A stretch of DNA of 47,916 bases from a virus, in the IMG/VR virus record IMGVR_UViG_3300034012_001149, positions 1 to 47,916 of that record; one strand, 5' to 3'. Below, in pieces: positions 10,581-47,916 of the stretch; position 1 is the first letter of the stretch; each line of letters begins with the position of its first letter. Below the pieces are notes generated by a model. It was not told the DNA's origin and did not search any database. It saw only the letters and a list, made by a program, of their open reading frames with translations. The position numbers were made by a program, and so were the translations under genes.

Positions 10581-11111
10581 ATGGATATCAAGCAACTTAT
10601 GCAAGCCATCGGTCGCATCGGCAAGGCCGCAGCCAAGCTCACCAAGGACGTCCAAGCCGTCGCGGTGGAGTGCGCCTTGCACGCCGTCGATCACGGGAAC
10701 GTAACCCCCGCCAACGAACTGGTGGAGAACATCGGCAAGGGCATGCGCCGCGCATCCCTGCGGGCTTGGTTCGAGAAGAACACCTGCATGTTCATCCCCA
10801 AGGGTAAGGACAAGTTCGGGTTCGACTCCGAGCGCGCCAAGGCCATGAAGGCCGAAGACCGCGCCGCCCTGCGTGAGCGTCTCCTGGCCCTGCCCTGGGA
10901 AGACGCCAAGCCCGAGGCGCCCATCGTGTCCGTGTTCGACGTGTCCGAGGCCGTGGACAAGTTCATGAAGCGCATGGAGGGCATGGTCAAGGATGCCAGC
11001 GTGAGCGTGCGCAACCGCGAACTCCTGGAGATCCTCAACCAGCAAGTGTCCATATACCACGCCCAGCGTGTGATGGCCTCGATCAAGACCGACGGCGCTG
11101 ACGCCGAGTGA
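10581..11111 (+). CDS. Conserved early phage protein of unknown function
   Basis: 176 residues from the ATG at 10581, preceded by GGAG nine bases upstream. MDIKQLMQAIGRIGKAAAKL opens a helical N-terminus; a middle block (NIGKGMRRASLRAWFEKNT, then a short beta segment and KFGFDSERAKAMKAED) matches a widespread early phage protein whose members pair an RxxAMRAWFE-type helix with a lysine-rich strand. The C-terminal half is helical. It is the first gene of the rightward operon, followed by a stable hairpin, so it may be expressed very early. Function is not known to me. Confidence 0.75.
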   Translation: MDIKQLMQAIGRIGKAAAKLTKDVQAVAVECALHAVDHGNVTPANELVENIGKGMRRASLRAWFEKNTCMFIPKGKDKFGFDSERAKAMKAEDRAALRERLLALPWEDAKPEAPIVSVFDVSEAVDKFMKRMEGMVKDASVSVRNRELLEILNQQVSIYHAQRVMASIKTDGADAE

Positions 11112-11123
11112 GCCTAGCGGGTA

Positions 11124-11139
11124 GGCCCCTTCGGGGGCC
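11124..11139 (+). terminator. TTCG-loop hairpin after first early gene
   Basis: GGCCCC-TTCG-GGGGCC follows the stop by 12 bases and overlaps a partial copy of the palindrome array (CTAGCGGGTAG). It has no T-tract, so it may pause or weakly terminate, or protect the mRNA 3' end. Confidence 0.6.
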
Positions 11140-11197
11140 CTCCCAGTAGGTTTACCAACCCCGACACTATCCGCTAGTGTCCCAACCAGGAGGCATC

Positions 11198-11476
11198 ATG
11201 CCCACAGTCCATCGTGTAGCAGCCGGCACACTATCCGCTAGTGTGCGCGGCCCGAGACTCCCCGCTGCGCTCGACTTCCATGCAGTGCAAGCGGCCCGCA
11301 TCCCCCAAACCAGCGCACGCCCAGGCTACTCGGGCACCCGTCCGGGCTCCAAGATCAAGAGCCCAGGCATCTATCAGGCCGCATGCGTTAACGGGTTCCG
11401 CTACCCCAACCAGTTCCGCGAGCCCGGCCCCGGCAAGTTCTGGAACGCCAAGAACGACAGGAACACTAGCCGGTAG
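11198..11476 (+). CDS. Small basic protein with palindrome sites in its gene
   Basis: 92 residues starting MPTVHRVAAG, with AGGAGG four bases before the ATG. It is basic and rich in G, P, R and N, ending FWNAKNDRNTSR, without a recognised domain. One palindrome sits just before its ribosome-binding site, one lies inside codons 11-16, and one overlaps the last codons and stop, so a protein bound to the array would cover the gene at both ends. It could be the site-binding protein under its own control, but no DNA-binding fold is visible. The strong ribosome-binding site is the main support. Confidence 0.6.
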   Translation: MPTVHRVAAGTLSASVRGPRLPAALDFHAVQAARIPQTSARPGYSGTRPGSKIKSPGIYQAACVNGFRYPNQFREPGPGKFWNAKNDRNTSR

Positions 11477-34466: not shown

Positions 34467-34670
34467 ATGAAGATGACGCTTGACGCCAAGGGGCTGGCCG
34501 AAGCCCTCAGCCTGCCGGTGCGTACGGTTCAGCAGTACGCATCCCGCTACCCCGACAAACTCCCGCCCAGGCTCAATCTGCCCAGTCGGAAACTGATGTG
34601 GGCTGTGACCGACGTGCAGGAGTGGGTCGAGCGCCACCGCGCAGCTTCGCCGCAAGCTCCGCAGCAGTAG
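34467..34670 (+). CDS. Excisionase-like HTH protein
   Basis: 67 residues, ATG with GAGG five bases upstream. MTLDAKGLAEALSLPVRTVQQYAS and KLMWAVTDVQEWVERHR form a MerR/excisionase-type winged HTH in the place where temperate phages keep the excisionase. It is convergent with the integrase and overlaps its 3' end by 98 bases. It probably directs excision and may also repress int or early transcription; a Cro-like role is an alternative. Confidence 0.75.
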   Translation: MKMTLDAKGLAEALSLPVRTVQQYASRYPDKLPPRLNLPSRKLMWAVTDVQEWVERHRAASPQAPQQ

Positions 34671-35610
34671 GGTTGTAGTAGGTCTGGAGGGACTTGTAGT
34701 CCCGGTGGCCGATGACCGCAGCGAGTTCTTGCAACGAGAGCCGCTTGGCCAACTGACTCGTGGCCTCATGCCGCGAGTCGTGAAAGTGGAGGTCCTTGAT
34801 CCCGAGGGCCTTGCACGCATCTCTGAACTCCACGCCAATGCTTCCAGCGTTGACCGGGAAGACCCGGTCGTCCAGGCGTGGTAACCCCCTCAGCAATTCC
34901 TCAGCACGCTCCGTGAGCAACGCATGGCGGTCATCGCCGTTCTTGCCGTGCAGCACGTAGAGCGTTCCTTGTGCGGAGTCCACGTGGGACCAGCGCAGCC
35001 GCATCAACTCTCCCAGGCGCAGCCCAGTGTGGCACGCGAACTCGAACATCCACGGCACGTACTCGCGCACCTTGGTGGGCGGTGAGACTCCGAAGTGCCC
35101 CCACAGGGCAGCCAGCTCCTGGTCGCTTGGCCGGCGCTTGCGGTGCTTGCCCTTGGCCGGGCGCAGACACGACTTCACCGGGTTGGCCCGCAGCTTAATC
35201 CTCCAACGCTTGATGGCGTAGGTGAAGACCCCCGAGATGACGTTCAGCTCGCGGTTGACGGTGTCGCCGCTCACCTCGCCCTTGCGCTCCTCGCACCAGT
35301 CGACCAGCGCGTCGGTGCAGGCGGTCAGTTGGAGCTTGGTCCAGTCGGCCTTGAGCAGCCGGGTGATCGCGTTGAAGTTCCACTTCCAGTCGTCCTTGGC
35401 TTCGACGACCTCGCGCCTGTAGCGCAGGAACAACTCTTCAACGGTCAGCTTGATGGGCGCGACGTACTCGCCCTCGTCGATCTCGACTTCGAGCTTGCGG
35501 GCGAACTTGTCGGCGTTCGCTTTGCGTTTGAACGTCTTTGAAACTGGGCTAACGCCTTTGCGTCGAACCTGGACGCGGTAGCGGCCGCCGTCTTTGTACA
35601 CGGTAGGCAT
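34573..35610 (-). CDS. int: Tyrosine integrase
   Basis: 345 residues with GAGGAG before the ATG. A small N-terminal arm-binding part (MPTVYKDGGRYRVQVRRKG) and a core-binding region precede the catalytic domain: R198 (TGLRLGE), K223 (HGKNGD), H277-x2-R280 (HFHDSR), H302 (GHRDYK) and Y311 or Y312 as nucleophile. It inserts the phage into the host chromosome at att sites. Its last 32 codons are antisense to the xis-like gene. The attP is expected in the AT-rich segment upstream, but I cannot fix the core. Confidence 0.97.
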   Translation of the reverse strand: MPTVYKDGGRYRVQVRRKGVSPVSKTFKRKANADKFARKLEVEIDEGEYVAPIKLTVEELFLRYRREVVEAKDDWKWNFNAITRLLKADWTKLQLTACTDALVDWCEERKGEVSGDTVNRELNVISGVFTYAIKRWRIKLRANPVKSCLRPAKGKHRKRRPSDQELAALWGHFGVSPPTKVREYVPWMFEFACHTGLRLGELMRLRWSHVDSAQGTLYVLHGKNGDDRHALLTERAEELLRGLPRLDDRVFPVNAGSIGVEFRDACKALGIKDLHFHDSRHEATSQLAKRLSLQELAAVIGHRDYKSLQTYYNPTAAELAAKLRGGARPTPARRSQPTSVSDWAD

Positions 35611-36068: not shown

Positions 36069-39000
36069 TCACTCCTCATCCTCGGTCACGAGGTCTTCGA
36101 CAAAGCGACGGGTGTCGCGGTTGAACTGGATGCCGCCCAGCGTGTTGCGCTCGCGCTCGCGCTGGTTCTGCTCGGCCCGCATCAGGGACGACAGGGGCTG
36201 GCGCCGATAGCCGGCTTCCTCGCGGGCGTCTTGCAGCGCCATCCAACGCTCCCGAGCCTCGGCCCGGGCGTCCGGGTCATCCTTGGCCCGCAGGTAGGCG
36301 TTGCGGATCTTCTCCGCCTTGCCCTGGAACTTGTCGTCCGCCTCGCGCTTGACCCGGTCGCGGAACTGGCGCTCGGCGAGCTGAGTGGGCTGGAAGCCGA
36401 TGGCCTGCCAGAACGTGTCCATGCCTGAGATCTCGTCCGGGGAGATCAGCTCGTCGCCGTTGCGCCGCGTCAAGCCTTCGGTGGCTTGCCGGTACGACTT
36501 CATGGCGTTGGTCACGCCCGTGGGCACGAGCTGCTCCACGCCCCGGTAATACTGCCCGTCACGAATTAGGTTGATGCCGTCTGCTGCGCGCAACGTCAGG
36601 CCCCCAGCAGGGCCGCCGAACGCAGCGAAGGCCGCCGACTCCAGGCCCGCCCGGCTGGACAGGTCCAGGTCGTTGAACGGCAGCAGCGACAGCACGTTGC
36701 CGGCGCCGAGCTTTTGAGACAAGTCCACGCCGAGCGCCGCAGGGACGCCACGGGTGATGAGGGTCGCCACCTGCTCGTTGCCAATCCACTCGCGCAGCGC
36801 CTGCTCGGTGTTGAACGGCTCGTCGTCGCCCCCGCCCATCAGCGCACCGAGCGCCCAGGAGATGGCAGCGAACCCGGGTAGGCCGATGGCGCCGGCCATG
36901 ACGGCGGTGTGGCCCAGCAGGAACCCGAGTGCCTTGCGGGCGGCAGCCTGCTCCTGGCCGCTGAAGCTGTTCTTCACGAGCTTGGCCAGCAGCGTGAGCT
37001 GGATGAGCTGGAACTTGCGGAACTGCAAGGCCACCTTGCCGCCTGGGGTGTTGAACACCCTGGGCGCGTTGCCCGCCGTGTAGTCGCCGTGGGTCTGCGT
37101 GATGATGGAGTCGGCGTACTCCAGGGCCGCGTCGGCGTTGCCGGTCTTGGCAAGCTCCATGCGGTAGGCCGCGATGGCAGTCGACAGCCGGTTGACGGCT
37201 TCGAGCTTCTGGGCGACGTTGCGGATCCCCCGGTCGACCTTGTTCCAGCGGTCCTTGACCGGACCCTCGCCTTCGAGGCGGAACTCACCGAGGTCGGTGT
37301 CCATGCCGATGTCGATGCGCCCACGGTCCACCAGCTTGGAGATGGCAGCCCGGACATCTTGCGGCGCGGCCGCGTAGTTGAACTGCTCTCCCAGCTTGGC
37401 CGTCTTGAACATGGGAGCCAAGTCCGTGTAGGCCTTGAGCAGCGCGTTGCCCACCTTCAGGTAGTTGTGCCGCCCGGCCATGACCGGCAGCGACATCATG
37501 AACGGCTGGGTCAGGTTCTGGAAGTAGTACGCCGGGCTCGTGGCCAGATACCAGATCGAGGACAGCCGCGCCAGCTTGGAGGCGATGGGCGTCGGGTCGT
37601 AGTCCATGGACTGCGTGTGCCGCTTCATCAGCTCATTGAACACACCAGACTTGGTGTTCTGCGTCTCCGCGTCGCCGGACTTCACCTCCTTGCGCATCGC
37701 GTTGAAGACGTCCAGGGTCTGGTTGTTGAACTTGGCCCCGGCGATGAACTGCGCGTCCGCCCGCCCCTGGGAGGTGAAGGAGCGCAGCATGTCGATCTCG
37801 CCGGCCACGCCACGGCGGCGCATCTCGGACTTGCGGGCTGAGGCTTCCGCCAGGGACGACAGGTACAGCTCACCCACCACCTTGCGGGCGGCTCGCACTG
37901 CGTTCTTCTCGCCCGGCGCGGCGTCGGCCAGCTCCGAGTCCAGCTCAGAGCGCAGCTTGTTGAAGGCCGAGAGCATGCCGCCGAACATCGTCTGCTGGAC
38001 GGCTTCCTTCTGGCGGAACACCACGTCGGCGAAGGCGCCCTGCTTCTGAAGCTGCGCCACCAACTCACGGGCTTCAGCAGCCGACTCAGCGAACGACACG
38101 TGGTAGTCGTCGCCCGAGTTCTCCAGCTTGGCCTGCGTCTTCTCGTCGGCGTCCAGGTACTTCTGCGAGCGGGCGATGACCACGTAGTCACCGAACCGCT
38201 TGAGCGGCGCGTAGGGCTTGAACTCCTGCAACGCGAACAGCGAAGTGAACCGCTTGAGCTGGTCGGTCTTGTCGGCAGTCAGTCGGGCAGCCTTCTTGGC
38301 ATCGTTGGCCTTCTGGGCCGCCGCGATCAGGACGTCGTACTCAGAGTTGGTCGCGTCAATGACCGTCTGCTTCTTGAGCGACAGCACCTCGTCGCCGTGG
38401 GTGAAGACCGCCCGCACCAGGGCCTTGGACTCCTTGGACAGCGCATCGAACCGCTGCTTCATGTCGGCGTCGATCTTGACGTTGGCGCTCGTGCCCTTGC
38501 GCCAGTCGGGCTTGAAGCCCCACGTGCCCTCGCGGGTGGCGTCGTACAGGTACTGGTTGACCGAGCGTGGGCCGGTGCCGCGCTCGGCCTCGGGGACCCG
38601 GTTGTACAGGTCGGCCACGCGCTCGACTTCGCGCTCCAGCTTGCCGGTCAGGGCCGCACGCTCCTGGTACACCCGGCGCAGGTCGTTGGCCGACTTCACG
38701 CCCAGGTCGACGGCGCGGTTGATGACGTCCTCGGTGAACGTCAGCAGGTTGAGCGCCGTGTTCCCGACGTCGCGCAGCGTGTTGGTGATGGTGTTGACGG
38801 GCTTCTGGAGTTCTGCGGGCAGGGCCTGCCGCTTTAGGAACCGCGCCCCTTGCCCATCGAGCCCTTGGGCTCCACGATTACGTGCGGCTTCTTGCCCGAC
38901 AACTTGTTCTTGCGCAAGCGCTCCTGCGCCTGCTTGAGCAGCTCCATCGCGGCCTGCTTGCGATTTTTCTGCGTTGATGGCGTCATACACGCTCTCCATG

Positions 39001-42000
39001 AAATCCGCCAGGGCGGGGTGATTGTCTTCCAGGTAGACCCGCCCATTACGGTCCAGGTGCATCGCCCAGAGCTGCGCAAACACCTCCTCACGCAGGCGGT
39101 CTGCGGTGAGATCGCCATACTGCGAGAAGTCGAACGGGTACGCCAGCCTCTGCCCCAGCTCGCCCGTCGGGTCGTTCTGGAAAGCGTCGAAGGCCTCGCG
39201 CATCAGCGAGCCCATGGGGATGACCTTCCCGTTCACCACCCGGACGTTGAACCCCGCATCGCCAGAGTAGGCGCCACCCCCGAACTGAACGCCATCGGCT
39301 ACGTGGCCGAACTCGTGGCTGATCGTCCACTCCGAGAGGTCTGAGCTAGGCAGGACTCCGCCACGAATGGCCAGTGCCAGCCCGCCATTGACAGGCATCA
39401 GCGCACCGTCGAAGTCGACGCTCTCGTCGGTCACTACGAACGTGGTGACATCGTCGAGTATCCCACCAAGACCCCTGCTTCGGAGTGTGGCGAGTGCGCG
39501 GGCCACGCCCGGGAAGCGCTCCAGCGACGCGAGGTCTGTGACCGAGCCAGTGAACTTCAGCCGGCCGGAGTCGACTTGCACCGCCTGCCCCTTCTTGAGC
39601 TTGCGGAGATCACCTGCGGCTGCGTCGAGCGTAATGGTGGGCTTCGCGCTGGAACGCTGCATCAACGCAGCGACATCCTGGCGGGTCCAGTTGTTCTCGC
39701 CGTACCCCACGAACTCCTTGCGTGCGGCCTCTGGCAAGTCGGCCCACTTGGGTGCGCCGGGAATGGAGTTGGCGGCTCGGTCCCACGCCTGCCCGGCCTG
39801 CTCGGTGGGCGTCAGGATCTTGTCAACGGGTGCAGCCGGCGCAGGCGCTGCGGCCTCGGCCTTCTTGACCCGGCGAACCTTCGGGGCCTTGGGCGGCTCG
39901 GCACCCTTGGCCTTGCGCACTGCACCGCGCTGGAGGACGCCTTCGGCCTGCTCGATCTCGGCCTGCATCTTCGCCTGTAGGTCAGTGACCTCCTGCTCCA
40001 GTTGCTCGATGGGCACCAGCTTGTTGTTGACGGAGACCTCGGACTTGCCGGCGGCGCGGGCCTGAGCGATCTGCTCTGCACGCTTGGCGGCTTTGTCCTG
40101 CAAGTCCATCGCCTTCTGCGTGATCTTGGCTGCGACCTCGCTGGGGCTCAGGTACTTGGTCTCGACCTGGGAGATTTCCGCGTCGGCGGACTCCACAGCA
40201 GCGTCGTCGCCTTGCTCCTCGGCTGCGGCGCGGCGGGCGTACAGATCGTCCAACTTCTTCTGGTCGGCCTGGGTGATGTTCTCGCGCCCGGCCAGCTCGC
40301 CGGAGTCGCGCCAGTTGGAGACTGAGCCGCCCAATGACGCACTGGTGGAGAAGCCCGCGTCGCGCAGGCTGGGGTCGCGCCCGCCCGTCTCAGGAGCGGT
40401 GTCGGCGCCGAAGGCGGACTCCGTGGCCTCCAGGTCAACGTCGGTGCGCCCACTCGTGGGCGTGTCGGCCTCTGCCGCGCCTTGCGCGGGCGACAGCTTG
40501 GCAGCAAGCTGAGCAACGTAGTCGTCGGTCCAACCGAACTTCTTCTGGGCGCCCTTGATGCGGGCCGCCCGGGTTTTCTGCCCCAGCGCCCCTTCGCCGG
40601 TGACCTTGGCCACGTTCTGGCGCGACTGGCCATACTTGTTGGCGATGGCCTCCTCGGTCATGTTCTCCACGTAGCGGTCGTACAGCATCGCCGCATCGCG
40701 CTCGCCGAAGATCTGGTTGAGCGTGGTCAGCGTGTCGTCTTCAGCCGCCTCGTCGCCCTGCTCGGCGGCGATGTCCTCAGCCACCTTGAAGAGGTTGACC
40801 CGTCGACCCTGCGCCTTGGCGGCGCGAGCCTCGGACCAGACCTGTTGCAGCGATGGCGTGAGTGCTGCCAGTGCGGGAGCGCCGTCGGGCTTGGAGTCTT
40901 CCCAGTCGGTCTCGTCCGTGGCCTCGACAGTCTGCTCTTCCTCAGCAACGGGCTCAGGAGCAACGAAGGCCTGCGACTGTGCCAGGGCGGCCGGGTTGAC
41001 GACACGCCGCTTGCGCTGGACTACGGGCTCGGTGGGCGCCCCGGCCTGCGGCTGCGCAGCAATCTCAGCATCCACTGTCGGTTGCGCCTCCGAGGCCAGG
41101 GCATCCGTTACAGGCTCGGCTGGCGCAGCGGGCGCGGCGCCTTGTGCGGCGGTGGCTGCCAGGGGAGCTTCTCCCTGCGCTTCTGCTTGGACGGCTTGAG
41201 GGGCTTGGACATTGGCGGGGGCCTCCAGTACAGGCAGGGACGTGACTCCGGGCGCTTGGGCCACGGATGGGGTTGGGGCAGCCGCAGGCGGGGTGCCCTT
41301 GACGACACGCAGCCCACCAGCAGGGGTGGGGGCAACAGCGGGCGTAGGCGCAGCAGGCGCAGCAGGCGCAACAGGCGCAGCAGGCGCAACAGGCGCAGCA
41401 GGCGCAACAGGCGCAGCAGGCGCAACAGGCGCAGGAGCCTTCTTGGACTCGATGATGGCCTGGGCCAGGAGCTTCTTGGCCTGCGCGTTCTTGCGCTCGG
41501 CCATGGCGGTGACCACCGGGGTCAGCGACTCCATGGGGAGCCCCGAGGCCCTGATCTCGCCCAGCAAGTTCAGTGCGTTGCCGTTGGGCACCACGCCCAT
41601 GTCGATGAGTTCCTGCTCCTCAGCCGAGTAGACCCTGGAGGCGGCGGGCGGCGGAGCCGGCGCCGGAGTCGGCGTAGTGGGCAGCCCTTGGGCCAGCAGC
41701 GAGGCCTCGATGGCAGTCAGCTCGCGCTCCACGCCATCTTCGCCTGCGACACGGATACCCGACGGGGCGTCGAACGCTGCGGCGATGTCGGCCTCGCGGG
41801 CCTTGCGCTGCTTCTCCAGCTCCTTGGCAGCAAGCGCCGGGGAGATGCCCAGTTGCTGGTCGATGACTTCCTGCGTGCCGAGCCCCGAGTCCGGGCGGAT
41901 CATGCCGAGGATCGGAGCGAGTTGTTCCTGCCGCGCCCGCTCTGCGTCGGCGATGGCCTTGTCCCTGCGCAGCAAGTCGGACTCGACAGCGCGGTTGTTC

Positions 42001-42887
42001 AGGTAGCCCACGGCAAGGCCGGTGCCACCGCCCATGACGGCGCCCATGGCGGCAGAGCCCACAACGCCCTTCATCGGGTCGATGGTCGGGTCGTACTGGC
42101 CGGCTGCGAGGTTGGCGGACCCCTTGGTGATGGCCTCTTCAAGGCCTTCTTGCGTCGCCTCGTAGAGGCCGGTGCGCAGCACGGGCGCGTTGCGCAAGCC
42201 GCGAGTGCCCGCAAGGATTCGCTCGATACCGAGAGCGCCCGTTGCGCCGCCGACCAGCGCAGGCACGACAGAAGCTTCACGAGCTGCTTGCCGAGCCAGC
42301 TCCTCCCTGACTGCCGGGTCGATGTTGGGGCTGCGCATGACCTGCTCATACGCGTCGCCTGCGGCGTCTCCACCTGCGGCCGCACCCCCCAGAACCACAC
42401 CCGCGCCGACACCGGATCGCGCTACGCCTTTCTGGCCGAGCCCGGCGGCGGACGCCAGAGCCTTGGTGCCCTTGATGGCCGCACCGAACGGACCGAAGTT
42501 GCCCCCGATCTCAGCCACCGTCTGGAGGGGGTTCTCCAACACGTACCGGCCCACACCACCGACGGCGTCCCAGCCACCCGCGTCAATAGCCCGACTGCGG
42601 TCCTCGCGGGCCTGCCGCACCGAGTCGGAGTAGGTCTTCTCGCCCTCGTCGATGACGTACTGAAGCCCCCGCGAAACGGGGTTGTCGACCGAGATGAAGT
42701 CGCTGACCGCCTTGCCGATGCCCAGCGCCGAGTTGACCCCGGTGACGATCGTGTCGTTGGCGAACTGAAGTGGGCTGCGAGTCGTCGAGCCCCGAGATGG
42801 CGGGGAAATGAACGTAGGGGTGAACCCCTCGATGGGTGCGGCCGAGCGCCGAGTTGAAGCCTCGGTGAAACCCTCGATGATCGGCAT
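36069..42887 (-). CDS. Giant polyvalent internal virion protein with zincin and HTH
   Basis: 2272 residues. N-terminal glycine-rich, membrane-like segments lie at about 125-165 and 270-300. A Pro/Ala hexapeptide repeat linker is at about 486-514. A sigma-like HTH (MTEEAIANKYGQSRQNV) starts near 743. Long charged helices follow. A zinc-peptidase motif HEFGH is at 1191-1195, with E1267/E1268 as third-ligand candidates. The C-terminal 400 residues fit the LPD38-type domain (APRVFNTPGGKVALQFRKF; membrane-like LGFLLGHTAVMAGAIGLPGF). Such polyvalent proteins are packaged and injected with the DNA to act on the host. Start has GAGGG upstream. Confidence 0.92.
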   Translation of the reverse strand: MPIIEGFTEASTRRSAAPIEGFTPTFISPPSRGSTTRSPLQFANDTIVTGVNSALGIGKAVSDFISVDNPVSRGLQYVIDEGEKTYSDSVRQAREDRSRAIDAGGWDAVGGVGRYVLENPLQTVAEIGGNFGPFGAAIKGTKALASAAGLGQKGVARSGVGAGVVLGGAAAGGDAAGDAYEQVMRSPNIDPAVREELARQAAREASVVPALVGGATGALGIERILAGTRGLRNAPVLRTGLYEATQEGLEEAITKGSANLAAGQYDPTIDPMKGVVGSAAMGAVMGGGTGLAVGYLNNRAVESDLLRRDKAIADAERARQEQLAPILGMIRPDSGLGTQEVIDQQLGISPALAAKELEKQRKAREADIAAAFDAPSGIRVAGEDGVERELTAIEASLLAQGLPTTPTPAPAPPPAASRVYSAEEQELIDMGVVPNGNALNLLGEIRASGLPMESLTPVVTAMAERKNAQAKKLLAQAIIESKKAPAPVAPAAPVAPAAPVAPAAPVAPAAPAAPTPAVAPTPAGGLRVVKGTPPAAAPTPSVAQAPGVTSLPVLEAPANVQAPQAVQAEAQGEAPLAATAAQGAAPAAPAEPVTDALASEAQPTVDAEIAAQPQAGAPTEPVVQRKRRVVNPAALAQSQAFVAPEPVAEEEQTVEATDETDWEDSKPDGAPALAALTPSLQQVWSEARAAKAQGRRVNLFKVAEDIAAEQGDEAAEDDTLTTLNQIFGERDAAMLYDRYVENMTEEAIANKYGQSRQNVAKVTGEGALGQKTRAARIKGAQKKFGWTDDYVAQLAAKLSPAQGAAEADTPTSGRTDVDLEATESAFGADTAPETGGRDPSLRDAGFSTSASLGGSVSNWRDSGELAGRENITQADQKKLDDLYARRAAAEEQGDDAAVESADAEISQVETKYLSPSEVAAKITQKAMDLQDKAAKRAEQIAQARAAGKSEVSVNNKLVPIEQLEQEVTDLQAKMQAEIEQAEGVLQRGAVRKAKGAEPPKAPKVRRVKKAEAAAPAPAAPVDKILTPTEQAGQAWDRAANSIPGAPKWADLPEAARKEFVGYGENNWTRQDVAALMQRSSAKPTITLDAAAGDLRKLKKGQAVQVDSGRLKFTGSVTDLASLERFPGVARALATLRSRGLGGILDDVTTFVVTDESVDFDGALMPVNGGLALAIRGGVLPSSDLSEWTISHEFGHVADGVQFGGGAYSGDAGFNVRVVNGKVIPMGSLMREAFDAFQNDPTGELGQRLAYPFDFSQYGDLTADRLREEVFAQLWAMHLDRNGRVYLEDNHPALADFMESVYDAINAEKSQAGRDGAAQAGAGALAQEQVVGQEAARNRGAQGLDGQGARFLKRQALPAELQKPVNTITNTLRDVGNTALNLLTFTEDVINRAVDLGVKSANDLRRVYQERAALTGKLEREVERVADLYNRVPEAERGTGPRSVNQYLYDATREGTWGFKPDWRKGTSANVKIDADMKQRFDALSKESKALVRAVFTHGDEVLSLKKQTVIDATNSEYDVLIAAAQKANDAKKAARLTADKTDQLKRFTSLFALQEFKPYAPLKRFGDYVVIARSQKYLDADEKTQAKLENSGDDYHVSFAESAAEARELVAQLQKQGAFADVVFRQKEAVQQTMFGGMLSAFNKLRSELDSELADAAPGEKNAVRAARKVVGELYLSSLAEASARKSEMRRRGVAGEIDMLRSFTSQGRADAQFIAGAKFNNQTLDVFNAMRKEVKSGDAETQNTKSGVFNELMKRHTQSMDYDPTPIASKLARLSSIWYLATSPAYYFQNLTQPFMMSLPVMAGRHNYLKVGNALLKAYTDLAPMFKTAKLGEQFNYAAAPQDVRAAISKLVDRGRIDIGMDTDLGEFRLEGEGPVKDRWNKVDRGIRNVAQKLEAVNRLSTAIAAYRMELAKTGNADAALEYADSIITQTHGDYTAGNAPRVFNTPGGKVALQFRKFQLIQLTLLAKLVKNSFSGQEQAAARKALGFLLGHTAVMAGAIGLPGFAAISWALGALMGGGDDEPFNTEQALREWIGNEQVATLITRGVPAALGVDLSQKLGAGNVLSLLPFNDLDLSSRAGLESAAFAAFGGPAGGLTLRAADGINLIRDGQYYRGVEQLVPTGVTNAMKSYRQATEGLTRRNGDELISPDEISGMDTFWQAIGFQPTQLAERQFRDRVKREADDKFQGKAEKIRNAYLRAKDDPDARAEARERWMALQDAREEAGYRRQPLSSLMRAEQNQRERERNTLGGIQFNRDTRRFVEDLVTEDEE
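41347..41432 (-). repeat. 18-base tandem repeats encoding a Pro/Ala linker
   Basis: Near-perfect repeats of an 18-base unit (plus strand AGGCGCAACAGGCGCAGC) code for APAAPV repeats in the giant protein. In-frame units mean copy-number change only alters linker length. Confidence 0.85.
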
Positions 42888-44502: not shown

Positions 44503-45615
44503 TCAAGCCCTTCCAATGCCTAACTGCTTTTCGAACTGTAGCCCGTCCTGCCGCATCTTTTCCAACTTGGCAAGGCCGTACTTCCTAACCGTACCCACCG
44601 GCAGGACGAACTCTCCGTCCGACAGCAGTGCGGGCACACGGTCATCCTTGGGGCCGCCGGGGCCGGAGACTTTGCCGCCGCGCTGAGTCGTGGCCCCCGG
44701 GCGCACCTTGGGCGGGCGGCGGCCCACATGACCGCCGTTCTTGTACCCCATGGCGGCGTTGACCTGCTCTTCGGCGAGCGTCTGCGGGTCGTATCCATCA
44801 GAGTCAACTTCGCCGCCGTCAGCGAACTTCAACCCCGCAAAGGTGCCGACTGCTCCGGCGATGTCGCCGTAGAGCCTCTGCTTGGCCTGATAGCCCTGCA
44901 TGTTGTAGTTCGACAGCCCCATTGCGAGGTTGCCCGCGTTGCCGTACATGTCGCCCGACATGCCGTAGCCCCCGCGCATGAACTGGTTGCCCTGGTTCAT
45001 GATGCCCATACCTTGGGCGGAGTTGTTGCCCGCAGCTCCGCCGGCCGCGTTGGCGCCCTGCATGAAATTGCCCGTGTCCATGACCAGCCCGCGACCCATG
45101 CCGGCCACAGCGGTCTTGCGGGCGAAGTCCTCGCCCTCAGCACCGACCCGGATGTTGGTGGCAAGACCCGCCGCCCCCAGGGCGTCGGCGTTCTTGTTGG
45201 CAGCCATCGCATAGGCCATCGCCGAGCCGTCGCCCATGTTGTTGCGGCGGATCTCGCGCATCAACTGCTGATCACGCCTGCCGCTTTGCTGGCTGAAGTC
45301 CGCCACGGCCCGGCCCACACGGCCGTCGACGTCGATACCGCGCTTGGCCTCAGTGAGCAGCTCGTCTTCGAGCCCTGCGAACTGCTTGTAGCGCCCGAAC
45401 TGGTAGTCGGCGTACTCGTCTTGCTTGCGCATCGAGCCGAGGTAGGCGTCTTGCAGCTCCTCGCGCAGCGCAGCGTCTTCTTTAATAGCCGGCAGGTAGT
45501 CACGGTCATAGGCCGTCTTGGTCCAGTCGAACTGTTCCCTGGCGAGTTTCGACTCGTTCTCAATGGCCTGCCCGACGCGAGGGTCCGGCGGCGGGGGTTT
45601 TCCTGACCATCCCAT
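44503..45615 (-). CDS. Virion protein with FADGG and DGEFV motifs
   Basis: 370 residues from the ATG at 45615, with GGAG eight bases upstream. A helical N-terminal third with D/E/K/Q (about residues 15-130), a Gly/Met/Asn-rich middle (GMGIMNQGNQFMRGGYGMSG), KFADGGEVDSDGYD at about 275, and LLSDGEFVLPVGTVRKYG at about 335 are a combination common in podophage internal or tail proteins. It precedes the other internal virion genes, and its start is two bases after the upstream stop. Confidence 0.75.
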   Translation of the reverse strand: MGWSGKPPPPDPRVGQAIENESKLAREQFDWTKTAYDRDYLPAIKEDAALREELQDAYLGSMRKQDEYADYQFGRYKQFAGLEDELLTEAKRGIDVDGRVGRAVADFSQQSGRRDQQLMREIRRNNMGDGSAMAYAMAANKNADALGAAGLATNIRVGAEGEDFARKTAVAGMGRGLVMDTGNFMQGANAAGGAAGNNSAQGMGIMNQGNQFMRGGYGMSGDMYGNAGNLAMGLSNYNMQGYQAKQRLYGDIAGAVGTFAGLKFADGGEVDSDGYDPQTLAEEQVNAAMGYKNGGHVGRRPPKVRPGATTQRGGKVSGPGGPKDDRVPALLSDGEFVLPVGTVRKYGLAKLEKMRQDGLQFEKQLGIGRA

Positions 45616-45617
45616 GG

Positions 45618-46073
45618 CTACTTCTCCAGGTACTCTTCCAAGGTGTCGTTCTGCACCAGGAGCTTGATCTCCGGTGCAACCTCGATGCCCCACTGCATGC
45701 CGCCGATGAGGCGAGCCATGTGGATGAAAACGTCCCCGATGCTGTGCCGGATCACGTTGGCGATCTCAAGACTCTTCTTGTCTTTCGACGCCTCGAAGCG
45801 GTTGGCCGTCAGCCAGTTGACCACCCCCAGCTCGATGAGCGGCATCAGCTCATCCATGTGCTGGCGGTAGAACCTGTTGCGTGGCATCGCGCACAGAGCG
45901 AACATGAACGCGTTGTGCAGGTCCTGGTCCCGAACTTCGCAGTCCTTGTCGAACAGGTCATCCCAGACGTCGCAGACGTGGATGAGCATCATTGCGAAGC
46001 CCACCGCGTCCTCGTTGCCTTGGAAAAAGCGGCGGAACTTGTCAACGGTGTCCGAGTCACGCATGGCTGGCAT
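45618..46073 (-). CDS. All-helical conserved phage protein
   Basis: 151 residues. HVCDVWDDLFDKDCEVRDQD and a second FRRFFQGNEDAVGF block match a helical phage protein family (CxxWDDLxDKD) whose function is not known; the DDL motif superficially recalls prenyl-transferase aspartates but the family is different in size. GTTAGCA lies just before the ATG. An ATG at codon 4 is possible. Confidence 0.7.
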   Translation of the reverse strand: MPAMRDSDTVDKFRRFFQGNEDAVGFAMMLIHVCDVWDDLFDKDCEVRDQDLHNAFMFALCAMPRNRFYRQHMDELMPLIELGVVNWLTANRFEASKDKKSLEIANVIRHSIGDVFIHMARLIGGMQWGIEVAPEIKLLVQNDTLEEYLEK

Positions 46074-46099: not shown

Positions 46100-46495
46100 C
46101 TACTCCGCCGGGGGCGGGTTGTACCCAGGCACTGACTCCGGACCAGAGGTCGCCGTGGGCGCAGGCGGGAGTTGCGGCGGCTCCCAGGGATTGACCGTGA
46201 ACTGGGGCACCTCTCCAGGATCGTCGTCGGCGTCGCCCTGGTACAAGGGACCACCGTCATAGTCGGCCAGCAGCTTGTAGAAGGTCGCACGCGGGTCTTC
46301 GGCCATGCGCCAGAAGGGGACGATCTGTCGCTCCACAGACAGCGGCTGGCTGCCGTTTTGTCGCGCCTCAGCAGTCGCGTAGGTGGCCACGCTCAGCACC
46401 ACCTCCTGGGAGTACACATTGACTTCGACCTTGTCGATGCGGTGGTACTGGGCGTTGATGCCGAACGGGGTCGCGCAGTCTTTGATGATGGCCAT
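46100..46495 (-). CDS. Tail- or fibre-associated small protein
   Basis: 131 residues from the ATG at 46495 (MAIIKDCATPFGINAQYHRI). A short beta domain, YHRIDKVEVNVYSQEVVLSV, then ATYATAEARQNGSQPLSVE, is a pattern I associate with phage tail-region proteins, and a Pro-rich tail (WEPPQLPPAP) ends the protein. Nine bases separate it from the desaturase gene. Function is not known. Confidence 0.65.
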   Translation of the reverse strand: MAIIKDCATPFGINAQYHRIDKVEVNVYSQEVVLSVATYATAEARQNGSQPLSVERQIVPFWRMAEDPRATFYKLLADYDGGPLYQGDADDDPGEVPQFTVNPWEPPQLPPAPTATSGPESVPGYNPPPAE

Positions 46496-46503
46496 GGTGG
46501 TTT

Positions 46504-47238
46504 TCAGTTGGTGCGGATCAGGCGGATGAAGGCGGCGCCGGTATCCAGGTGCCACCAGCGGGTACGGAAGTCAGCCCAGCCCGGGTGGTCGTGGTGAGTT
46601 CCGTGGTGCCACTCGCCAGCCGCAGGTAAGACAAACTCAAGCGCCGCAAGGTCTCGCGGCCTGCCTCCCCAGTGGCCAATAACCTGATGAATGGCGCCAG
46701 CGATATGCGAGCTACCCATGGGCATCAGGTATAGGAAAAGAAAGGCCGCCGGCGAAATCAGTAACCCGGCCACCGCGAAGATGGCCCAGAGCGCAGCACC
46801 GTTGCGATGGACAAAATCTGTCACGGGGTCGCCCACCATGCGGCGCAGGCGCACTTTGGCCATCGGCACGTCGCGGAACCCCTTGTAGAACAGATAGGTC
46901 CAGTCGGTGTAGTGAGGATCGAGGTCGGTGTCGGAACGGGCGTGATGGGTGGTGTGCATCGTCGCCCAAGCGTAGGGCGATCCGTACAGCAACGGCACAC
47001 TGTAAAGCGCCATGACGCGATGCCAGAACGGAGTGGTCTTGAACGCCCCGTGAGAGAAGTAGCGATGCAGGCCGACCGACACCATCAGGGTGTGCCACAG
47101 GTGCATGACGAACCAGCCGAGCAGCCACCATGCGCTTGCCTGCTCGGTGACAAGCAGCCAGACGCCGCTCGCCACACTTGCACAACCGACGACGTGAGCC
47201 GCTGAAATGGTCCAGGAGGGAAACCTAAACACGAGCAC
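46504..47238 (-). CDS. Membrane fatty acid (acyl-CoA type) desaturase
   Basis: 244 residues with several membrane segments (about 11-32, 38-56, 150-171). The three histidine boxes are H58-x4-H63 (GLHRYFSH), H95-x2-HH99 (HTTHH) and H212-x2-HH216 (HGTHH), the di-iron ligands of delta-9-type membrane desaturases, with further histidines near 178-189. It introduces a double bond into a membrane fatty acyl chain and needs an electron donor. It is co-transcribed in the late operon and overlaps the upstream gene by 14 bases. It would probably change host membrane fluidity during infection or in the lysogen. Slightly shorter than cellular relatives. Confidence 0.95.
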   Translation of the reverse strand: MLVFRFPSWTISAAHVVGCASVASGVWLLVTEQASAWWLLGWFVMHLWHTLMVSVGLHRYFSHGAFKTTPFWHRVMALYSVPLLYGSPYAWATMHTTHHARSDTDLDPHYTDWTYLFYKGFRDVPMAKVRLRRMVGDPVTDFVHRNGAALWAIFAVAGLLISPAAFLFLYLMPMGSSHIAGAIHQVIGHWGGRPRDLAALEFVLPAAGEWHHGTHHDHPGWADFRTRWWHLDTGAAFIRLIRTN

Positions 47239-47764
47239 CTCCGATCAGAAAGCCGTAGGTAGCCGGTGCCGCTTGCAACGGCGAGCCGTCTGCTACAAAA
47301 GACTCTCCGGCAAAGTGCCCGCCGATCCCCCCTCGGCATACAAGAACGATCAGCCCGTGCGGAAGGGTGACATTCTGGTCTTCGGTGATCCGCAGTGCCT
47401 GAGCCTGGGGCAGCGCCCCACGGTTGGCGGTCCAGTTGAAGCACCAGAACTCAAGCTCGGTGTCGGCCAGCGTGGTCACCGCACCCTTGGGTACGTCCCC
47501 TCGCTCAGGGGAAAACATTCCGGGAACTCGGTCTGGGTACGCTGTGCCGTCGTCGCCCGTCACGATGCCCCTGCCGCGCACGGTGAGCGTGATATTGGCC
47601 GCTTTGGTGCGCTCGACAGCCTGCGACGATATCGTAATCAGCTTCGAGCCCGGCGGCATGATGTGTTGATGGACTTTCCACCCAAAAACCGTAAAGGCTT
47701 CCACGTGCACTCCCGAAGTGCCCGCGTCGTATGAGCCTCGCCAGTCTCGCCTCGATACCGTCAT
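47225..47764 (-). CDS. Cupin-like beta protein, unknown
   Basis: 179 residues, strand-rich, with GVHVEAFTVFGWKVHQHIM, GRGIVTGDDGTAYPDRV and a glycine-rich C-terminus. It might fold as a cupin or beta-sandwich, but a full metal-binding motif is not visible. It starts four bases after the previous stop and overlaps the desaturase gene by 14 bases, so the two are likely co-translated. A role in the virion or as partner of the desaturase is open. Confidence 0.6.
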   Translation of the reverse strand: MTVSRRDWRGSYDAGTSGVHVEAFTVFGWKVHQHIMPPGSKLITISSQAVERTKAANITLTVRGRGIVTGDDGTAYPDRVPGMFSPERGDVPKGAVTTLADTELEFWCFNWTANRGALPQAQALRITEDQNVTLPHGLIVLVCRGGIGGHFAGESFVADGSPLQAAPATYGFLIGGARV

Positions 47765-47767
47765 CGC

Positions 47768-47916
47768 TTACTCCACCGTGTAAATGACTACGGACCCCGG
47801 CACTACCGAGTTGTCCTTCGGGTAGGCGTCTTTCACGGCCTTGATGCGGCTGTAGAACGGCTCGACACGAGGCAAGTGGTGGTCGTCCATGGCGTGCCAG
47901 AGCATGTCCAGTTGCT
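47768..47916 (-). CDS. Partial small phage protein (5' end outside window)
   Basis: The last 48 residues are present: QLDMLWHAMDDHHLPRVEPF, then SRIKAVKDAYPKDN and a short strand. QLDxLW and the later IKAVKxxYPK pattern match small proteins widely found in phage tail regions, whose role is unknown. Its stop is three bases before the next ATG. The frame is open to the window edge; joining it to base 1 would bring a stop at once. Confidence 0.7.
   Translation of the reverse strand, partial: QLDMLWHAMDDHHLPRVEPFYSRIKAVKDAYPKDNSVVPGSVVIYTVE

What the first reader, a model, noticed from the sequence alone, without database searches (positions are those of the whole stretch)
46504..47238. Fatty acid desaturase in the late operon
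A membrane desaturase with all histidine boxes overlaps a late gene by 14 bases. Auxiliary metabolic genes are known in phages, but a lipid desaturase is uncommon, and its position among virion genes suggests expression late in infection, when membranes change before lysis. Alternatively it benefits the lysogen. No phage electron donor (ferredoxin or reductase) is present, so host partners must serve.
Basis: partly seen in the sequence, partly recalled or inferred. Interest (0 to 1): 0.75.

Follow-up and report, generated by a model that had tools for sequence, protein, structure and literature searches.

The report
Phage lipid desaturase behind tail-fibre gene
A virus of bacteria carries a real, conserved membrane-lipid desaturase gene locked to a small barrel-protein gene and placed right behind the tail-fibre gene that recognises the host; such enzymes are known in phages, but this virus-only branch and its fixed partner and position do not seem to have been described.

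Summary
Window 46504-47238(-) encodes a 242-244 aa membrane desaturase with all nine metal-binding histidines, an AlphaFold model at pLDDT 95.7, and mouse SCD1 with its di-iron centre as best PDB match. What is distinctive is the branch. The window protein belongs to an all-virus clade found in 20 viral contigs, supported in the tree, with no cellular member found. In all 20 it directly follows one uncharacterised gene (window 47225-47764, predicted two-cupin barrel), usually with a conserved 8-nt GTGNNTAR start/stop overlap. In seven contigs tested with success, the upstream large gene is a tail fibre. The genes after the pair differ between contigs, so the pair moves or persists as a cassette of the host-recognition locus. 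Both genes are under purifying selection. The window holds no recognised electron donor. Most likely it is an acyl-lipid desaturase made late with the tail proteins that changes the host membrane. Whether this serves fluidity and assembly, lysogens, or a change of the surface that the fibre binds is open. Substrate, host and expression are untested.

The parts
46504..47232 (-). membrane fatty-acid desaturase gene, conserved GTG start (242 aa); the first in-frame GTG is at 47238 (244 aa)
47050..47067 (-). histidine box 1, HRYFSH (H58, H63)
   Evidence: invariant in 90 relatives
46942..46956 (-). histidine box 2, HTTHH (H95, H98, H99); the usual HRxHH arginine is lost in this clade
46672..46689 (-). 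HQVIGH: Q185 in place of the usual Asn of NxxxH, ligand H189
   Evidence: the basal member L107 keeps Asn
46591..46605 (-). histidine box 3, HGTHH within EWHHGTHH (H212, H215, H216)
47225..47232 (-). GTGTTTAG: start of the desaturase overlapping the stop of the partner gene, with GGAGG in front; suggests coupled translation
   Evidence: pattern kept in 13 of 16 relatives
47225..47764 (-). partner gene, 179 aa, predicted two-cupin barrel; directly upstream of the desaturase in 20 of 20 contigs
47768..47916 (-). 3' part of a 129-aa tail-fibre-associated gene (cut by the window end; whole in L016/G003 at 10879-11268)
46100..46495 (-). downstream small late gene (phrog_5084, unknown), likely start at ATG 46495
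45618..46073 (-). 151-aa late gene (phrog_21390, unknown)
44503..45693 (-). virion structural protein (phrog_8003)
34573..35610 (-). tyrosine integrase; context for a possible lysogenic life style

Best explanation
This is a working SCD/DesC-fold membrane desaturase, most likely of the acyl-lipid type. It is translated together with a small two-cupin protein as a fixed pair at the 3' end of the phage's tail-fibre locus. Shown: intact and invariant metal ligands, the (predicted) fold, purifying selection, the fixed and overlapping pair, the place behind tail-fibre genes, and the virus-only clade. Inferred: it is made late from the tail operon, inserts into the host inner membrane, takes electrons from host ferredoxin or reductase, and puts a double bond into acyl chains of host membrane lipids, changing membrane properties during assembly and release. 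That the barrel protein works with it (as partner, regulator or fibre accessory) is inferred from strict linkage alone.
For: All nine His invariant in 90 relatives. Profile hits acyl-CoA desaturase at 4.6e-36. AF2 pLDDT 95.7 and SCD1 di-iron structure as top PDB hit, TMq 0.77. dN/dS 0.08-0.21 in pairs where dS is not saturated. Partner gene directly upstream in 13/13 desaturase-clade loci and desaturase in 19/19 partner loci, together 20 contigs. Overlap pattern GTGNNTAR in 13/16 and correlated divergence r=0.80. Upstream tail-fibre genes in 7 contigs by PHROG. Clade all-virus, SH-aLRT 97. SCD1's CoA-contact residues Arg155/Asp156/Asn148 (identity of these residues from memory) are Thr/Met/Gly in the alignment, which argues against acyl-CoA as substrate.
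Against: No activity, lipid or expression data. The clade departs from the canonical motif at two widely kept places (Asn to Gln in NxxxH, Arg lost in HRxHH), which could mean altered chemistry or substrate. No electron donor in the window. The host is unknown, and two searches for the partner gene in about 700 bacterial genomes found nothing, though those searches had no positive control.
Confidence: 0.6

Rival explanations
1. Receptor-linked module: the pair alters a surface or membrane lipid (for example lipid A or an outer-membrane lipid) that the adjacent tail fibre binds, blocking superinfection or loss of progeny on debris, as receptor-blocking genes next to receptor-binding genes are known to do in other phages (for example T5 llp beside its receptor-binding gene; from memory).
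For: The pair stays with the tail-fibre locus in contigs with different downstream genes. Fold relatives of the partner protein in Prochlorococcus phages P-HM1/P-HM2 match by length two genes that directly follow a glycine-rich host-specificity adhesin and a small gene. Mosig's desaturase also lies a few genes from tail fibres.
Against: No evidence about substrate or receptor. Many phages keep accessory genes near tail fibres. The other phage desaturases often sit beside oxygenase genes, not with this partner. The match of P-HM2 genes to the fold hits is by length only.
Confidence: 0.2
2. Lysogenic conversion: the gene serves the prophage-bearing cell (cold or stress tolerance).
For: Integrase in the window; an integrase-like gene follows the desaturase closely in L019, L023 and L109.
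Against: Lies inside the tail gene run with no promoter-like site found (a weak test). No cellular genome with the pair was found.
Confidence: 0.12
3. The protein is a hydroxylase or acts on a non-lipid substrate, using the changed motif.
For: Asn to Gln/Thr and loss of Arg in box 2 in the clade; weaker profile similarity to alkane monooxygenase.
Against: Best fold and profile match is SCD by a wide margin. The basal member L107 keeps Asn.
Confidence: 0.08

Closest known systems
Stearoyl-CoA desaturase (SCD1, 4YMK/6WF2; human 4ZYO)
   Same: Fold, histidine boxes, di-iron site positions
   Different: About 18% identity, shorter, CoA-contact residues not kept, Gln for the water-ligating Asn
Virus-encoded fatty acid desaturases (vFAD, PMC7300359; cyanophage lipid desaturases, Roitman et al. 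2018, not held, cited there)
   Same: Phage gene, same enzyme superfamily, proposed change of host membrane
   Different: Those in PMC7300359 form four clades, some with host genes; the window clade has a fixed partner gene and sits behind the tail fibre. Not compared directly with their sequences
Pelagibacter phage Mosig FA_desaturase (QOI69044.1)
   Same: All nine ligands, short form, in a gene block near tail fibres
   Different: 26% identity; neighbours are Asp_Arg_Hydrox, aminotransferase and FMN reductase; no partner gene found beside it
P-HM2 small genes PHM2_037/038 (possible fold relatives of the partner protein)
   Same: Predicted barrel fold and place behind an adhesin gene
   Different: No sequence similarity detected, no desaturase beside them; identification with the fold hits rests on protein length

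Membership tests
Membrane-bound fatty acid desaturase (SCD/DesC type) | H(x4)H, HxxHH, HxxHH boxes | tested here: met
   invariant in 90 sequences
Membrane-bound fatty acid desaturase (SCD/DesC type) | Ninth histidine in NxxxH, with Asn | tested here: inconclusive
   His kept in all; Asn is Gln or Thr in most of the clade, Asn in L107
Membrane-bound fatty acid desaturase (SCD/DesC type) | SCD-like fold with membrane helices | tested here: met
   (predicted model)
Membrane-bound fatty acid desaturase (SCD/DesC type) | Makes a double bond in an acyl chain | not testable with these tools
   needs expression and lipid analysis
Pfam PF00487 FA_desaturase (as a curated model, not the superfamily) | Gathering score | tested here: not met
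   no hit to E 10; profile-level kinship with SCD shown
Acyl-CoA desaturase in the narrow sense | CoA-contact residues (Asn148, Arg155, Asp156 in SCD1, recalled) | tested here: not met
   alignment shows Gly, Thr, Met
Phage auxiliary metabolic gene | Encoded by a virus, flanked by viral genes | tested here: met
Phage auxiliary metabolic gene | Close cellular relative that shows a recent host origin (usual, not required) | tested here: inconclusive
   none found; best cellular relatives are distant and outside the clade; sampling is limited

The most novel reading that the evidence does not exclude
A mobile two-gene module of the phage host-recognition locus in which a desaturase and a two-cupin partner chemically change the lipid surface seen by the phage's own tail fibre: enzymatic superinfection exclusion by lipid desaturation.
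Probability: 0.17. Interest if true: 0.8.

Novelty: new variant of a known kind. Interest (0 to 1): 0.52.

Why it matters
Phage desaturases have mostly been read as borrowings that help the host membrane. A virus-only branch, with a fixed partner and a fixed place behind the fibre gene, points to long-standing viral use and ties lipid chemistry to the host-recognition locus, which makes a direct test possible: express the pair, measure lipids, and measure adsorption.

Tried and rejected
Chance ORF: rejected. Recent host gene: no close cellular relative in the 84,980-species scan (its peptide patterns cover the clade only partly) or in 299 genomes of one phylum. Host assignment: searches with a virion protein and the partner gave no usable answer, and negative results there had no positive control. 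A desaturase next to the P-HM2 barrel genes: none found in the two stretches read. The partner in Pfam, PHROGs, PDB sequences or isolated phages: no convincing match. The cyanophage desaturase paper (PMC5776448) is not held. The partner as a metal cupin enzyme: no usual His-x-His metal motif among its invariant residues, so not claimed.

Full report
Observation. The ORF 46504-47238(-) is real. Across relatives the conserved start is the second GTG, at 47232, overlapping the upstream gene's stop by 8 nt as GTGNNTAR (ATG once) in 13 of 16 contigs, mostly with a GGAG-type site in front.

Enzyme. No Pfam desaturase family is hit even at E 10 and NCBIfam only weakly, but single-sequence search reaches SCD (2e-5 to 3e-5), a family profile reaches it at 4.6e-36, and the AlphaFold model (pLDDT 95.7) has SCD structures as its only significant PDB matches. 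All nine ligand histidines are invariant in 90 viral and bacterial relatives. In the window's clade the usual Asn of NxxxH is Gln in most members (Thr in L024, Asn in the basal L107) and the Arg of HRxHH is lost. SCD1's CoA-contact residues (recalled from the structure papers) are not kept (alignment), so an acyl-lipid substrate is more likely than acyl-CoA; this is inference.

Distribution. Among isolated phages only Pelagibacter phage Mosig has a detectable relative of the window protein (25%). In viral contigs, 138 relatives turned up in one scan. In the genome scan of 84,980 species only 10 distant ones did; its patterns were of limited reach. In a tree of 92 rows the window's clade (17 rows) is one all-virus group (SH-aLRT 97; quick method, some long branches, L107 among them).

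Partner and place. Every one of 20 contigs of the clade has a relative of the 179-aa gene directly upstream, and all 19 contigs found by searching with that gene have the desaturase directly downstream. Divergence of the two is correlated (r = 0.80; relatedness of the phages alone contributes to this). The partner is predicted with high confidence as an all-beta protein (pLDDT 92.4) resembling two-cupin barrels at low TM-scores; its nearest fold relatives are uncharacterised phage proteins, with P-HM2 and P-HM1 further down. In P-HM2, genes of the matching lengths follow a glycine-rich adhesin. Upstream of the pair lie tail-fibre genes in seven contigs where PHROG gave an answer (the 691-aa upstream protein of L025 gave none), often through a 129-aa gene of a tail-fibre-associated type. 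The genes after the pair vary: small late genes, an integrase, tail proteins, lysis genes (partly read by eye). Between the window and G004 only about 1.5 kb around the pair aligns at the DNA level (76%).

Virus. SU10-type adaptor and portal, DNA polymerase, helicases, integrase and a 2,272-aa protein related to DarB-like/PLxRFG proteins. Host unknown. No ferredoxin, rubredoxin, Rieske or cytochrome b5 by Pfam or motif; the virus record is incomplete.

Function. dN/dS of 0.08-0.21 where measurable shows that the protein is kept. The best-supported reading is a late-made desaturase of host membrane lipids. The fixed seat in the fibre locus keeps a receptor-linked role alive as a rival. Papers read: PMC7300359 proposes membrane fluidity for virus-encoded desaturases; PMC7678222 and PMC11480375 report further phage cases.

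Noticed in passing
L026:1391-4721: A phage contig with a desaturase beside a 4'-phosphopantetheinyl-transferase-like gene; ketoacyl-synthase and FabG-like genes occur among the neighbours scanned, hinting at phage fatty-acid or polyketide gene blocks.
   Followed up: no
L036-L091 (many), L006: Other phage desaturases often sit among Asp_Arg_Hydrox, TauD and FMN-reductase genes: a recurrent oxygenase block in phages.
   Followed up: partly
L156:27671-30419 (P-HM2): Two small genes directly after a glycine-rich host-specificity adhesin, possibly fold relatives of the 179-aa partner.
   Followed up: partly
L022:6892-7506; L118:7448-8383: A different cupin-like late gene near the pair in some contigs (in L118 in a longer, 311-aa frame).
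   Followed up: no
window 36069-42887: 2,272-aa late protein with Ala-Pro-rich repeats, related to DarB-like/PLxRFG phage proteins in its C-terminal part.
   Followed up: no
L092 (G008 contig C169): A Bacteroidetes bin contig with two desaturase frames, one with an inner stop, falling among phage sequences in the tree: perhaps a binned phage contig.
   Followed up: no
G002 and G004: Two contigs from different samples are 99.9% identical over 50 kb.
   Followed up: no
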